Below are positions 969 through 5,846 of a stretch of DNA of 5,846 nt, piece after piece. A model generated the notes under the pieces. The model saw nothing but the letters and a program-made list of their open reading frames with translations, made no database searches and was not told the DNA's origin. Every line of letters starts with the position of its first letter. Positions within the stretch are counted from its first letter, which is position 1. The translations under genes were made by a program, and so were the position numbers. The DNA comes from T1SED10-198M sp003554345 [NCBI: Candidatus Sumerlaeota bacterium] (lineage in GTDB: Bacteria > Sumerlaeota > T1SED10-198M), in assembly GCA_003554345.1 (NCBI GenBank), contig PWGE01000289.1:1-5846 (forward strand). The letters run 5' to 3'.

Positions 969-1226
969 ATGAAAGAAAGGCGATTTTCTGAGTGGAGGCG
1001 ACGTTTTCAGAGAATGCTGGATGGGGTTTGCCAGGCACCTGTCTCCGCCTGGTTTTACCGCAGCGATTTTTTCCCGGGGCCTTTATTACGGATTATCCTC
1101 TTTGTTTCCAGGTTAATTCTTCTGATGTTATTTCCCATTCTGATTCATTCATGCGCAGGGTATTGTTTTTTTCAGGAGGGAGATGCTGCGCATTTATTTT
1201 TTTGTAATTATAAAAGGTGGTTATAA
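969..1226 (+). CDS. Doubtful small membrane protein (85 residues)
   Basis: I do not recognise this product. The frame opens with ATG six bases after AGGGG, a usable ribosome binding site. It would encode an Arg-rich amphipathic N-terminus (KERRFSEWRRRFQRM), one hydrophobic segment at about residues 39-60 (LLRIILFVSRLILLMLFPIL), and a short Cys-containing tail (C62, C66, C78). Against it: no family is recognisable, another open frame overlaps it on the same strand (992-1207), and a terminator-like hairpin with a T run lies inside it (1151-1203), which would cut the message before the stop. The segment could equally be a non-coding RNA or the remnant of a larger membrane-protein gene. The concentration of Arg before a single span fits a real small membrane protein but can arise by chance. 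Confidence 0.25.
   Translation: MKERRFSEWRRRFQRMLDGVCQAPVSAWFYRSDFFPGPLLRIILFVSRLILLMLFPILIHSCAGYCFFQEGDAAHLFFCNYKRWL
1151..1203 (+). terminator. Terminator-like hairpin followed by a T run
   Basis: ATGCGCAG at 1151-1158 pairs perfectly with CTGCGCAT at 1186-1193. TTA and seven T residues follow, ending at 1203. The 27-base loop is long for a factor-independent terminator and itself contains seven T and an AGGAGGG. It could end a plus-strand RNA from the 900-1150 region, or act as a regulatory fold ahead of the gene at 1347. Confidence 0.35.
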
Positions 1227-1346: not shown

Positions 1347-2744
1347 ATGAGAACGACTGGTGAAAACAGGAACAAAGTTTTTTCAGTATATTTATTCATT
1401 GTTTTTTTATTCATTGTGTCATCATCTCTCCTGGCAAATATTCAGGATATTGATCAGCCGCAACGTGTATGGAGTAAATCGGCAGGAGAATATCCGTGGT
1501 TTCAGGAGGATGACTCAACCCGCGCTTTTGCCCTGAATCCAGTTACCGGAAATGTTCTGGTTGGTTCGTTCCATTCTGAAGGGGGAATCTATATCTTATC
1601 CCATGACAATGGAGAAGTGGTTGGTAAGCTTGCCGGCTCAGATGAAATAATAACTGATTTTGGAGTTACATCATTAGCCGTGACCCATTCAGGGAAGATT
1701 TTTGCCACTAATTTGACATATGAACAGAATCATGTCAGCCATCTCTACTACTGGGAGTCGGAAGATGCCGATAATTATCAGGTTTTAACCACGAATTTTG
1801 ATCACCGGGCTGGTGATTGGATGGATGCCTGTGAAGATGCCGCGGGAAATGTGAGAATTGTCATCAGCGGTCCTCAATTTACCCGAAATCCATATGTCAA
1901 TTACATCTATTATAATTCTTCTGCCGACGGATGGTCGAACACCGTTTTGCAGATGAGTGGGGCGCCCTCTTCCGCGGATAATCTCAGAATGGCCACTATT
2001 GCACCTCAAAGCCACGATGAATACGAAATATGGTTGAAAGATATCAGTGATGAAATCTACAGGTTTTACCTGGATGGTAATTACAGGGAAAGAAGCCTTG
2101 ATGCGGGTTCTCTCACTGTGATGAGTAATGTTATAAAGACTCCTGACAGCACCTATATAGCATCAGCTCCTACCAGTGGTGGTGGCCGGCTGGCTCTTTA
2201 TGATGTTGAAGAGGGTCGAATGCTTGAAAACCACCCTTTTACTAATTCTAATACCAATGAAAATGCCACCGGTGATGTTGATTTAGCCGTTATAAATGAG
2301 TCCCTTTATATGATGGTGGGTGTTACTAATAACTCTGTTTCACTCTACCGGTCACAACAGCAACTTTCTGATGTGCCCGTTCACTGGCAAGCGACGGCTT
2401 CTGTTGATGAACCAACTCGTATGGATGATGAAAATATCTGGCTTACTGATCTGAATGAAGCGCTGACCCTGGCCCGCCGGGAAAATAAGAAGGTGCTGGT
2501 TTATTGTTACACCCCTCAAGCAGAAATGTGTCAGGAATATGATAATTATTTTGAGACTTCAGAATTCCGGGAAAAATTGCATGAATATATTCCTGTGCGC
2601 TTGAATATTGCTGAAGAAACCCATTACGCAAATGACTTGAATATATTTCGGGTGCCATCCATTATAATTATGGATCACCACGAGGAGGAAGTATTACGCA
2701 TTACGGAACCACTTGAGCGGGAGGAACTTTATAACAGCCTTTAA
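1347..2744 (+). CDS. Secreted DUF4623-like propeller protein with a C-terminal thioredoxin-like domain (AxxC)
   Basis: A 465-residue exported protein. Residues 1-30 form a signal peptide: a basic start (MRTTGENRNK), a hydrophobic core (VFSVYLFIVFLFIV), and a likely cut after SSSLLA. Residues about 38-345 are strand-rich and resemble DUF4623 proteins (RVWSK..., then STRAFALNPVTGNVLVGS, GGIYILSHDNGEVVGKL), a pattern suggesting blades of a beta-propeller; this family call is from memory of its style. Residues about 362-465 read as a DUF255/thioredoxin_7-like domain: ALTLARRENKKVLVYCYT, then a motif position, NYFETSEFREKL, VRLN, and RVPSIIIMD with the expected cis-proline at P437. The usual CxxC is A392-E-M-C395, so the nucleophilic cysteine is missing while the second remains; another Cys sits in the strand at C387. 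A normal thiol-disulfide reaction is therefore unlikely. The start is fixed by a strong ribosome binding site. The gene converges on the next one with a 3-base gap. The ligand or substrate is unknown. Confidence 0.85.
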   Translation: MRTTGENRNKVFSVYLFIVFLFIVSSSLLANIQDIDQPQRVWSKSAGEYPWFQEDDSTRAFALNPVTGNVLVGSFHSEGGIYILSHDNGEVVGKLAGSDEIITDFGVTSLAVTHSGKIFATNLTYEQNHVSHLYYWESEDADNYQVLTTNFDHRAGDWMDACEDAAGNVRIVISGPQFTRNPYVNYIYYNSSADGWSNTVLQMSGAPSSADNLRMATIAPQSHDEYEIWLKDISDEIYRFYLDGNYRERSLDAGSLTVMSNVIKTPDSTYIASAPTSGGGRLALYDVEEGRMLENHPFTNSNTNENATGDVDLAVINESLYMMVGVTNNSVSLYRSQQQLSDVPVHWQATASVDEPTRMDDENIWLTDLNEALTLARRENKKVLVYCYTPQAEMCQEYDNYFETSEFREKLHEYIPVRLNIAEETHYANDLNIFRVPSIIIMDHHEEEVLRITEPLEREELYNSL

Positions 2745-2747
2745 TCT

Positions 2748-5417
2748 TTATCGGGAGCTCTTTTTTAAATAAATACTTATTCCAATAAGAGCGGCTAAAC
2801 CTGCGATTGCTGCAGCCAAACTGAGAAACCATGGGACGGGAAGAAAAGTGAGTTTAATGTCTTTGCTGCCTGCAGGTACTTCAAATCCGAGAAAGGCGGT
2901 ATTGACGGTAATCATATCCTTCTTTTCTCCATCAATCTCAAGGTGCCAATCAGGGAAAGCCGGTATGGTCGTTGCTACCGATGTTTCTTCTTCAAAATTT
3001 CCGGACAGGTGATAAAAACCCTTTCCCTTTTCTTTTGTTTCCAGGGAAAAAGATTGTGGGGGGTCACCCAGGCTGTCTTTTTTGTTTTCCTGGATGAAAA
3101 CAATGCGACTCTCATTTTCAATGACGTCATGTTGATTCTGAGTGATCCATTCTTTTAAATATTCTGTATCCTCATATGAAATGATGGTATCAGGTACATA
3201 GAATCGAGGATAAGCTCGGGGATTGTAAAAAAGTTCGGAATGCTTTTCGCCGGGAGTAAAATAGTCGGGTTCATCATGTTCAGCTATTACCCGGTAGTTG
3301 ATAAAGGTGCCGCGGGGCATGGTGTTTTCGAGTACTACCTTTTCAACCGTCAATGGTTGGTTGAAAGGCAGATAAGTATAGTAATTCCCCATCCATTGAC
3401 GCTGAGGATGGTAATGAGGCCATCTGTTAACAATAGTAAGGTCACTGGTTCGACTGTGAATTTTTTCGAATTCCTGAACTTTCCAGAAATCGTAGGTTTC
3501 TTCTAAATAGCGCAATGGTTTAATGATTTCTTCTTCTTCAGCCTGGATTCTCAGTCTGCCGGCAGTTTCTCCGCGTTTTAGGGGAGCTGGAGAGTCAATG
3601 GCATTGACCAACCCTATTCCTTTCCATTCGTGGGGTGAATCTGTTTCAAAAAGCACTTTTTCTGAGGTGGGAGGAAGAATACTGGTAGTGGTAACAACCC
3701 CTTCTTTAGAAGGGTTGCCAATGATGTAACGTACAGAAAGCATATCCAGAAGGAGTGGGGAAACAGCGTCGAGAAGTAACAGTTCATGATCAACCCTGGT
3801 GGGTTTTCTTACCTGGAACAACTCAAAAAATTGAGCATAATCTTTGTACAGGAGGGGGTTGAGACCCTGGATACCTTCCAGTCCAAACCATTGCATGAAA
3901 TTAGGACTGCCAAAATGTAAAATACGACGGTCATAAGCGTCTTTGCCATGGAGTTGGGTGTAATTATAACCGGCCACCCTGTATTCTGAAGGTGAAGGCA
4001 TTTCGGTTTGGAGATACTGTATATGGGGAGGGATTTCAAATTCGTCCCAGCCTATTTCACGATAATCGTACCGAAACTGAAAAAACCAGCCATTGAATAG
4101 AAGAACACCTATTACCGGTAAGAGAGCAAATTTTTGATTGTGAATTATATAAAATAAGCCGATTCCCAGAAGGTTGACTCCTGCACAGGTAAGAAGAAAG
4201 GCTGGTGGGGAGAGCAGTATGAGCATAGATAAAGAAGTGGGAGGTAAGAGTATGTCCCGGGCAAAAAATACACCTGATGCGACGAAAATAAGAGAGCAGC
4301 AGAATACGATGAGTGATATCAGCCGGCTTTTCTCAGAACGGGAAACTCTGAAAGAACTATCAAGCCACCAGGCAAGAAAAAAGGGTAGAGTTGCCAGGCT
4401 GAGCATAAGAGCCCGGGAAGGATTGATGATTTTATCAAGTACGGGAATGAATTGAAAAAACCAGTAAAGACCGTATTGACCGAGAGCCAGTAAGAAACCC
4501 GTAATAAAGATAACATAATAGACACTCAGGCCGGTGAATTTTTTGAGTCCCAGGAAAAGGGGAAATATACCGATAAGTCCGACAAAAATGGTTTTGTCCA
4601 GGTTTTCCGGCGTGCTTATACCACCAAGCAGAGAAAGGGGTATTTCATGGAAGTGCAGTTGTTGTTCAAAAATTCTCCCCGCTTCGACAGTGGTCCTCAG
4701 TGTCATGGGTACCATGCGTACCAGCGAGATCAAAGTGGGTAGGGCAAGAAGAAAAGTGAAAAAACCGATAAATGCCAGCTGTAAAAAAATGATTCTTATA
4801 TTCCTGAACCTGGCTTTTACAAGAAAGGTGACTGCTGTAAGCAGTACCAGGACAGTTGCATACAGAGAGGTGTGGACATTGCCAATGTGGAAGATGAGGG
4901 CCAGGACAATGGGTACACCGGTGAGATAATGAGAAAGCCTGTTTTTTTCGAAAGCTCTGATAGTCAGGGAGAGCAAGAAGGGGAGGTAAACCATGGCAAA
5001 GAATATGACGGGATTAATGAATTTCCCCTGGATGCCGCCTGATAGAGCGAAAAGAAGTGCGCCGGCAAAAGAGGGGCCCACTCTGAATTTCAGGATTCGC
5101 AGACCGGTATAGGTCAGGACAAAGGCGAGTAAATGATGAAGAAAAGTGAAAAGGTTATAGGCAAAAGTATCCGGAAGGAAATAAAATAACCAGCGCAAAG
5201 GGTAAATGGTGGCGTTTTGAATGTTATAAACCAGAGGACTGCCGCCACTGATGAAACTTTCCCAGGTACTCAGGTCGGGAAACTGATAGAGGGTGAACAT
5301 GGGAAAAAGCAGAAGTAAATTATCGCCGTCCAGCGAAATTCCCTGAAAACGGTAATAAAATAGCAGTGTTGCAACAAAAAGCAGGGAAAGAGCGCTGAAA
5401 TCTTTTTTGCCAGCCAT
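2748..5417 (-). CDS. YfhO-family multi-spanning membrane protein (GT-C type)
   Basis: An 889-residue integral membrane protein. About a dozen hydrophobic spans fill residues 7-445, followed by a large extracytoplasmic part (about 446-862) and one last span (864-884) ending in a basic tail (LKKSSR). YfhO-type landmarks are visible: D30 and D32 in the first outer loop (SLDGDNLLLLFP), GGSPLVYNIQNATIYPLRW at 58-76, NPSRALML with R335, LLDMLSVRYII at 556-566, NPRAYPRFYVPD at 732-743, and a terminal beta-rich section with FPDWHLEIDG (821-830) and FLGFEVPAGSKDIKL. GT-C enzymes use polyprenyl-phosphate sugars outside the membrane; Bacillus YfhO is implicated in glycosylating lipoteichoic acid. Here the acceptor is unknown, and no partner glycosyltransferase or flippase lies beside it. 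No Shine-Dalgarno precedes the ATG, and no other good start exists nearby. It converges with the plus-strand gene. Confidence 0.85.
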   Translation of the reverse strand: MAGKKDFSALSLLFVATLLFYYRFQGISLDGDNLLLLFPMFTLYQFPDLSTWESFISGGSPLVYNIQNATIYPLRWLFYFLPDTFAYNLFTFLHHLLAFVLTYTGLRILKFRVGPSFAGALLFALSGGIQGKFINPVIFFAMVYLPFLLSLTIRAFEKNRLSHYLTGVPIVLALIFHIGNVHTSLYATVLVLLTAVTFLVKARFRNIRIIFLQLAFIGFFTFLLALPTLISLVRMVPMTLRTTVEAGRIFEQQLHFHEIPLSLLGGISTPENLDKTIFVGLIGIFPLFLGLKKFTGLSVYYVIFITGFLLALGQYGLYWFFQFIPVLDKIINPSRALMLSLATLPFFLAWWLDSSFRVSRSEKSRLISLIVFCCSLIFVASGVFFARDILLPPTSLSMLILLSPPAFLLTCAGVNLLGIGLFYIIHNQKFALLPVIGVLLFNGWFFQFRYDYREIGWDEFEIPPHIQYLQTEMPSPSEYRVAGYNYTQLHGKDAYDRRILHFGSPNFMQWFGLEGIQGLNPLLYKDYAQFFELFQVRKPTRVDHELLLLDAVSPLLLDMLSVRYIIGNPSKEGVVTTTSILPPTSEKVLFETDSPHEWKGIGLVNAIDSPAPLKRGETAGRLRIQAEEEEIIKPLRYLEETYDFWKVQEFEKIHSRTSDLTIVNRWPHYHPQRQWMGNYYTYLPFNQPLTVEKVVLENTMPRGTFINYRVIAEHDEPDYFTPGEKHSELFYNPRAYPRFYVPDTIISYEDTEYLKEWITQNQHDVIENESRIVFIQENKKDSLGDPPQSFSLETKEKGKGFYHLSGNFEEETSVATTIPAFPDWHLEIDGEKKDMITVNTAFLGFEVPAGSKDIKLTFLPVPWFLSLAAAIAGLAALIGISIYLKKSSR

Positions 5418-5435: not shown

Positions 5436-5573
5436 GTATATTTTTATAAAGGTGGTAGGAATTTTAACAGAATATCACAAACAGAAGCATGGTGAACAGC
5501 CCCTTTATTTTGTTGCCCGGAAAATATACGATAGCTTTTTCGGGAACTTACAGGATACGCTCTCATACGGAAT

Positions 5574-5588
5574 ACTCCTCTGAAAATA
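5574..5588 (+). repeat. 15-base direct repeat, copy 1
   Basis: ACTCCTCTGAAAATA, identical to copy 2 at 5755-5769 and 181 bases away. The match extends leftwards as AAT, apart from one inserted A in copy 2. A chance 15-base match anywhere in a window this size is expected roughly 0.02 times, so a duplication is likely. Confidence 0.75.
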
Positions 5589-5660
5589 GACTCTTCATAA
5601 TACAATGTACTTTGATAAAAAACTTGAACCTCACTATTGGCTTGCTGCTTCCCTGGGAGC

Positions 5661-5747: not shown

Positions 5748-5754
5748 ATGAATA

Positions 5755-5769
5755 ACTCCTCTGAAAATA
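5755..5769 (+). repeat. 15-base direct repeat, copy 2
   Basis: Second copy of ACTCCTCTGAAAATA, preceded by AATA where copy 1 has AAT. With copy 1 it brackets a segment of 166 bases carrying the two strong hairpins. Confidence 0.75.
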
Positions 5770-5846
5770 AAACCCTGGAAAAGAGGTTTTACATCGATAA
5801 TACGGTGATGAAGTCGAGATAAGTCCAGAAAGAATAAGAAACCAGA

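What the first reader, a model, noticed from the sequence alone, without database searches (positions are those of the whole stretch)
2433..2741. Thioredoxin-like domain with AxxC in place of CxxC, fused to a DUF4623-like secreted propeller
The C-terminal domain keeps the thioredoxin_7/DUF255 frame, including the helix ALTLARRENKK, the strand VLVYCYT, the second cysteine C395 and the cis-proline P437. The attacking cysteine position is Ala392 (codon GCA at 2520-2522, two base changes from a Cys codon). An exported protein with this domain would not be an ordinary disulfide reductase. C387, two residues into the adjacent strand, might substitute as a redox or metal ligand together with C395. 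The architecture, propeller first and degenerate thioredoxin fold last, is unfamiliar to me and may mark a binding or scaffolding family.
Basis: partly seen in the sequence, partly recalled or inferred. Interest (0 to 1): 0.6.

Follow-up and report, generated by a model that had tools for sequence, protein, structure and literature searches.

The report
Redox-dead thioredoxin tail on exported proteins
The protein ends in a thioredoxin-shaped domain that has lost its chemistry; in the poorly known bacterial phylum Sumerlaeota such dead domains sit at the very end of many different exported proteins, so they probably serve as a binding or attachment handle rather than an enzyme.

Summary
Window 1347-2741 encodes a 465-residue, probably exported protein whose last ~105 residues form a thioredoxin fold (AlphaFold2 pLDDT 91; Z about 14 to thioredoxins and cDsbD) with Ala392 at the attacking-cysteine position. 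It is not a lone mutation: a second protein of the same genome has another N-terminus (Golvesin_C) and the same AxxC. In Sumerlaeota (named through), 26 of 37 matches to the neutral Pfam model in four genomes lack the first cysteine, as do 81 of 98 rows read with our own profile; outside the phylum 5 of 43. The buried catalytic Asp is lost too (0 of 69), and a [FY][RK] pair appears in the former substrate groove (48 of 69; 0 of 51 CxxC domains). 70 of 81 rows end within 14 residues of the C-terminus, on 11 front-part classes without blastp links. C387 is private to this protein (1 of 80), so a C387-C395 pair is not supported. Most likely a non-redox binding handle; partner unknown. The DUF4623-like propeller usually occurs without this tail. 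A new variant of a known fold.

The parts
1347..2744 (+). ORF of the protein (465 aa) with stop; ribosome-binding-site-like AAAGGAGGTGG at 1328-1338
1347..1433 (+). signal-peptide-like N-terminus (about residues 1-29, hydrophobic run YLFIVFLFIVSSSLLA)
   Evidence: sequence; a loose heuristic accepts 64 of 64 relatives and 91 of 154 control ORFs, so it is weak evidence
1431..2402 (+). all-beta N-terminal module, DUF4623-like propeller by its relatives; 10 matches in 9 proteins of the same genome
   Evidence: fold of this part alone not resolved
2424..2741 (+). C-terminal redox-dead thioredoxin-fold domain (residues 360-465), ending at the stop codon
2502..2504 (+). Tyr386 at the buried catalytic Asp position (E. 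coli Trx Asp26, numbering recalled)
   Evidence: Asp 0 of 69 in the degenerate C-terminal group, 36 of 51 in CxxC domains
2505..2507 (+). Cys387, private to this protein
   Evidence: Cys in 1 of 80, Phe in 68
2520..2522 (+). Ala392 codon GCA at the attacking-cysteine position
2529..2531 (+). Cys395, former resolving cysteine
   Evidence: Cys in 30 of 69, Ser in 24
2646..2657 (+). Phe434-Arg435-Val436-Pro437: [FY][RK] pair before the cis-proline, in the former substrate groove
   Evidence: [FY][RK] 48 of 69 against 0 of 51 CxxC domains

Best explanation
The C-terminal domain is a redox-dead thioredoxin-fold module that the phylum Sumerlaeota uses as a common C-terminal tail of exported proteins. 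The catalytic set is gone (first cysteine, buried aspartate, usually the tryptophan before the cysteine), while the fold is kept. The groove that once gripped a substrate next to the cis-proline has gained a conserved aromatic-basic pair. Shown here: the fold (predicted), the losses, the new pair, the C-terminal position and the varied N-termini. Inferred: the domain binds a partner non-covalently through the old active-site face, as redox-inactive PDI domains do (recalled), and so holds carbohydrate- or ligand-binding front domains (Golvesin-like, propeller-like, kelch, laminin-G, CBM48) at a site in the envelope.
For: Same-genome second copy with another N-terminus and AxxC. With the neutral Pfam model PF13899, 26 of 37 matches in four phylum genomes lack the first Cys, and 23 of those 26 end within 14 residues of the C-terminus. 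With our profile 81 of 98 phylum rows lack it against 5 of 43 outside rows (3 of the 43 unreadable); each of the 30 phylum genomes with fetched loci has at least one. Position 26: Asp 0 of 69, Tyr/Phe 58 of 69; [FY][RK] 48 of 69 against 0 of 51. Tail of 14 residues or less in 70 of 81 against 7 of 17 CxxC rows of the phylum, Fisher p 2e-4, rows not independent. 11 front-part classes among 65 by blastp; Pfam tally of the 65: Thioredoxin_7 50, Golvesin_C 16, Laminin_G_3 4, Kelch_1 4, CBM_48 4. Signal-like start in 64 of 64. AF2 pLDDT 91, Z 14.2-14.6.
Against: No partner found; I looked at neighbouring genes at three loci only. The resolving Cys survives in 30 of 69, so a thiol role is not excluded for those. 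11 of 81 rows are not C-terminal. 21 of 69 lack the [FY][RK] pair. The trees are too weak to show one origin: supported branches force only 2 changes of the degenerate C-terminal label; the best trees need 4 and 10 changes for the Cys trait, and only 1 supported independent pair exists, so the residue co-changes may rest on few events. Our profile was built from degenerate domains and loci were fetched strongest first: 98 rows out of 309 phylum matches. The signal rule also accepts 91 of 154 controls.
Confidence: 0.6

Rival explanations
1. Sorting signal: the domain is a recognition tag read by a dedicated export or surface-attachment machine, as the C-terminal domain of type IX secretion cargo is.
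For: C-terminal place, signal-like start, many different cargo domains, several copies in many genomes.
Against: No machine identified. The T9SS tail Por_Secre_tail is found in 1 of 40 genomes (its control rang in 1 of 14 genomes only). SprA_N rang in 0 of 40 but also in none of the 14 controls, so that search says nothing. In the window's genome (87.7% complete) only 2 proteins with the tail were found.
Confidence: 0.2
2. Monothiol or metal site: Cys395, alone or with Cys387, still does thiol chemistry or holds a metal.
For: Cys at the resolving position in 30 of 69; both cysteines present in this protein.
Against: Ser in 24 and other letters or a gap in the rest; Cys387 in 1 of 80; the buried Asp that serves Cys35 is lost in all 69.
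Confidence: 0.08
3. Passive stabiliser: the domain only keeps the front domains soluble or protected, with no specific partner.
For: Thioredoxin is widely used as a solubility tag (recalled); the first-Cys position varies freely (V 17, S 14, A 12, N 8 of 69 and more).
Against: The loop pair [FY][RK] in 48 of 69 argues for selection on a surface.
Confidence: 0.12
4. Lone loss of function or assembly error in this gene.
For: Only one such protein is in the window.
Against: Paralog with the same AxxC; 79 other distinct degenerate rows in the phylum; GCA is three bases from a Cys codon.
Confidence: 0.01

Closest known systems
Thioredoxin_7 (PF13899) and the C-terminal domain of DsbD
   Same: Closest sequence family and among the closest solved folds; DsbD also carries its thioredoxin domain at the C-terminus.
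   Different: No CxxC and no buried Asp here, no DsbD membrane part; many different front domains instead of one.
Redox-inactive thioredoxin domains of eukaryotic PDIs (b and b' domains, ERp27; recalled)
   Same: Thioredoxin fold without active cysteines that binds ligands non-covalently.
   Different: Eukaryotic, ER proteins; no specific link tested here.
T9SS C-terminal domain (Por_Secre_tail, PF18962)
   Same: Shared C-terminal module on many different exported proteins.
   Different: Ig-like fold (recalled), not thioredoxin; found in 1 of 40 genomes of the phylum.
DUF4623 (PF15416); PDB 4ftd is the best profile match
   Same: N-terminal module of this protein, through its relatives.
   Different: The window's own sequence gives no DUF4623 hit.

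Membership tests
Thioredoxin_7 / thioredoxin superfamily fold | thioredoxin fold | tested here: met
   AF2 pLDDT 91.1; Foldseek best E 2e-7, prob 1.00; VIA Z to 14.6
Thioredoxin_7 / thioredoxin superfamily fold | Pfam gathering score for PF13899 | tested here: inconclusive
   28.7 bits for the domain alone, 24.7 in the whole protein, 28.6 in the genome search; cut-off 27
Redox-active thioredoxin / DsbD-type reductase | CxxC motif | tested here: not met
   AEMC here; first Cys absent in 81 of 98 phylum rows and 26 of 37 Pfam matches
Redox-active thioredoxin / DsbD-type reductase | buried catalytic Asp (Asp26) | tested here: not met
   Tyr386 here; Asp 0 of 69
Redox-active thioredoxin / DsbD-type reductase | disulfide reductase activity | not testable with these tools
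   needs an assay
Redox-inactive ligand-binding thioredoxin domain (PDI b'-like mode) | conserved ligand site on the fold without CxxC | tested here: inconclusive
   [FY][RK] 48 of 69 against 0 of 51; ligand unknown
T9SS cargo C-terminal domain | Por_Secre_tail domain | tested here: not met
   no such hit in the protein; 1 of 40 phylum genomes
T9SS cargo C-terminal domain | SprA translocon in the genome | tested here: inconclusive
   0 of 40, but 0 of 14 controls too
DUF4623 | Pfam gathering score for PF15416 | tested here: not met
   no hit for the window; one paralog 22.3 bits, cut-off 28.9

The most novel reading that the evidence does not exclude
Sumerlaeota have turned a thioredoxin into a C-terminal sorting or attachment tag: a dedicated envelope partner recognises the [FY][RK]-x-P/G patch of the dead active site and so docks many different binding proteins on the cell surface.
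Probability: 0.22. Interest if true: 0.8.

Novelty: new variant of a known kind. Interest (0 to 1): 0.5.

Why it matters
Sumerlaeota are little studied (recalled). A shared C-terminal module on many exported binding proteins is a concrete handle on how they place or display proteins; I did not survey their secretion systems beyond two T9SS markers. It also offers a bacterial, phylum-wide case of a thioredoxin fold that dropped its redox residues and changed its groove, testable against the CxxC copies of the same genomes. Searches of the held open-access papers, judged from their listings, showed no description of it; subscription papers and preprints are not held.

Tried and rejected
Rejected: lone mutation (relatives); C387-C395 pair; a special conserved residue in place of the Cys (V 17, S 14, A 12, N 8 of 69 and more); homology of the window's front part with the common 18-member front part that also bears this tail (hhalign probability 1.1%; no blastp hit). 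Led nowhere: viral-contig scan with the domain (2 pattern matches, none confirmed); SprA_N search (no control rang); single-sequence fold of the N-terminal part (pLDDT 40; no fold search made with it); a paper search on sorting domains in Planctomycetes (0 papers). The Sumerlaeota paper PMC8092238 was seen only as four passages for six terms: one mention of thioredoxin reductase, nothing on this domain. The C387-C395 distance could not be measured. An independent-pairs test of the co-changes had 1 supported pair and no power. One search prints residue labels 4 too low. One weak own-genome match (G000:C290, E 0.07) was not read.

Rows and selection: the 98 phylum rows come from loci fetched strongest first out of 309 phylum matches at E 1e-3 (summed over its 40 genome rows); one row is a truncated duplicate of another, so 80 distinct degenerate domains. 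From 10 of the 40 genomes no locus was fetched. Searches use 136 rows with at least 95 aligned residues and a readable first-Cys position. Two of its 26 degenerate matches (L221, L238) are long proteins of another layout, one more (L215) has the tail inside.

Full report
What is in the window. The + strand ORF 1347-2744 codes for 465 residues with a signal-like start, an N-terminal module and a C-terminal domain that ends at the stop codon. The neighbours are a universal stress protein (123-710, -) and a YfhO-type membrane protein (2748-5417, -), both on the other strand.

The domain. Residues 360-465 alone match Thioredoxin_7 (E 1.5e-6) and, under their cut-offs, Thioredoxin and Thioredoxin_2. 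AlphaFold2 on an alignment of 12 domains gives mean pLDDT 91.1 and alternating strands and helices as in thioredoxin. Foldseek's best matches are DsbD C-terminal domains and thioredoxins; VIA-align gives Z 14.6 to a thioredoxin-like protein and 14.2 to cDsbD. Ala392 stands for the attacking cysteine; Cys395 and Pro437 at the cis-proline position are kept. GCA is three bases from a Cys codon.

It is a family, not an accident. The same genome holds a second protein, 315 residues, with Golvesin_C in front and the same kind of domain at the end, 49% identical, also AxxC, with Phe in place of Cys387. A third match is an ordinary 157-residue CPPC thioredoxin; a fourth, weak one was not read. A genome-contig scan with relatives from other genomes of the phylum (full proteins with this tail) gave 11 loci: nine titled Sumerlaeota or Sumerlaeia, one candidate division BRC1, one only 'bacterium'. 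Contigs of 61247 and 6955 bases there equal in length those of G013 and G006, which the tool calls same phylum as the window; so the phylum is Sumerlaeota.

How common. Our profile A1, built from degenerate domains, hits all 40 phylum genomes held at E 1e-3 or better, 309 matches in all, ordinary CxxC proteins included. At E 1e-14 it hits 32 of 40 in the phylum and 37 of 346 others; at most 12 candidates per genome were scored there.

Cysteine counts. Of 98 phylum rows read, 81 lack the first Cys and 17 have it; of 43 outside rows, 35 have it, 5 lack it and 3 are cut before it. One of the 81 is a truncated duplicate. These rows were fetched strongest first, which favours degenerate ones. As a neutral control I took Pfam's own PF13899 model to four phylum genomes and read all 37 matches: 26 lack the first Cys and 11 have it; 23 of the 26 and 5 of the 11 end within 14 residues of the C-terminus. 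G001, a single 3.3 Mb contig, has 9 without and 4 with the Cys in that control. Each of the 30 phylum genomes from which loci were fetched has at least one degenerate copy.

More than the cysteine is lost. In the 69 C-terminal degenerate rows the position of E. coli Asp26 is never Asp (Tyr 32, Phe 26), against Asp in 36 of 51 CxxC rows. The Trp before the first Cys is present in 40 of 51 CxxC rows and is Gly, Asn, Gln, Asp or Glu in 55 of the 69. The cis-proline is Pro in 50 and Gly in 19; of those 19 only 2 keep the second Cys, against 28 of the 50 with Pro. What is gained is an aromatic-basic pair two residues before the proline: [FY][RK] in 48 of 69, against 0 of 51. In E. coli thioredoxin these are Arg73-Gly74 of the substrate-binding loop (numbering recalled). 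The 5 outside rows without Cys also lack Asp26, and 2 of the 5 have the pair; of 11 phylum degenerate rows that are not C-terminal, 3 have it (all).

Place and partners in the chain. Of the 81, 70 end within 14 residues of the C-terminus; of the 17 CxxC rows, 7 do (Fisher p 2e-4, rows not independent). The median number of residues after the domain is 1. A loose signal-peptide rule accepts 64 of 64 tailed proteins and 91 of 154 other ORFs of the same loci, so it supports export but weakly. Among 65 tailed proteins the front parts fall into 11 classes without blastp links; the largest are 24 (Golvesin and linked types) and 18 (a family with fronts such as WQSAGTL, propeller-like by appearance only), and the window's front part is alone. 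Pfam on the 65 finds Thioredoxin_7 in 50, Golvesin_C 16, Laminin_G_3 4, Kelch_1 4, CBM_48 4 and an OB-fold family 3. Linkers in the aligned 18 look rich in Ala, Pro, Thr and Ser (by eye).

The front module here. It has 10 matches in 9 proteins of the same genome, and further ones in 9 other phylum genomes and 2 outside, of 147 genomes searched. Of those 9 proteins only the window's bears the thioredoxin tail; one runs off its contig. The alignment shows the complete relatives ending about where the window's tail begins. One relative hits DUF4623 and the profile's best PDB match is 4ftd, followed by TRIM2 chains (NHL propellers, recalled). So 'DUF4623-like propeller' is fair, and the tail is an add-on.

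History. Trees on about 100 columns are poorly resolved. The degenerate C-terminal group is strongly clustered (8 or 11 changes against a shuffled mean of 45.8), yet one origin is neither shown nor excluded. The two genomes held of one other phylum carry a degenerate tail too, behind a front part that looks Golvesin-like by eye, so the architecture is not strictly confined to Sumerlaeota.

How it most likely works. With first Cys, Asp26 and mostly the Trp gone, thiol-disulfide exchange by the usual route should not be possible (established mechanism of thioredoxins, recalled). The fold, the C-terminal place and the new pair in the old groove speak for a non-covalent binding module shared by many exported proteins. 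Whether its partner is an anchor in the envelope, a sorting machine or the front domains themselves is open. A T9SS is not indicated: Por_Secre_tail in 1 of 40 genomes; the SprA test was uninformative.

Known or new. Dead thioredoxin domains are known (PDI b' domains, recalled). I found no description of this family in the listings or in the passages of PMC8092238. I rate it a new variant of a known kind.

Noticed in passing
G096:C1:1450216-1450545, G347:C244:13733-14071, G048:C77:48981-49307, G070:C20:1062-1358: Outside the phylum several matches carry one in-frame TGA; in the rows read the frame after it begins just before the second Cys, as expected for selenocysteine (UxxC) thioredoxins of a known type.
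   Followed up: partly
L137, L138 (genomes G167, G304, the two genomes held of one other phylum): Golvesin-like front (by eye) plus degenerate C-terminal thioredoxin outside Sumerlaeota: transfer or older origin.
   Followed up: partly
19 of 69 degenerate rows, e.g. L066, L075, L013: Cis-proline replaced by glycine, nearly always together with loss of the second Cys (17 of 19).
   Followed up: no
G001:C1:2847816-2850701 (L066): Three neighbouring same-strand genes, each with a different front and the same kind of dead tail.
   Followed up: no
L019, L015, L114, L063, L031, L059, L061, L064: Second layout: degenerate thioredoxin followed by about 150-230 more residues.
   Followed up: no
window 5571-5590 and 5751-5770: Near-copies of 20 bases (AATACTCCTCTGAAAATAGA / AATAACTCCTCTGAAAATAA) about 180 bases apart; seen by eye only, possible remnant of a mobile element.
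   Followed up: no
window 969-1226 (+): 85-residue ORF between the stress-protein gene and the finding; not tested, may be spurious.
   Followed up: no
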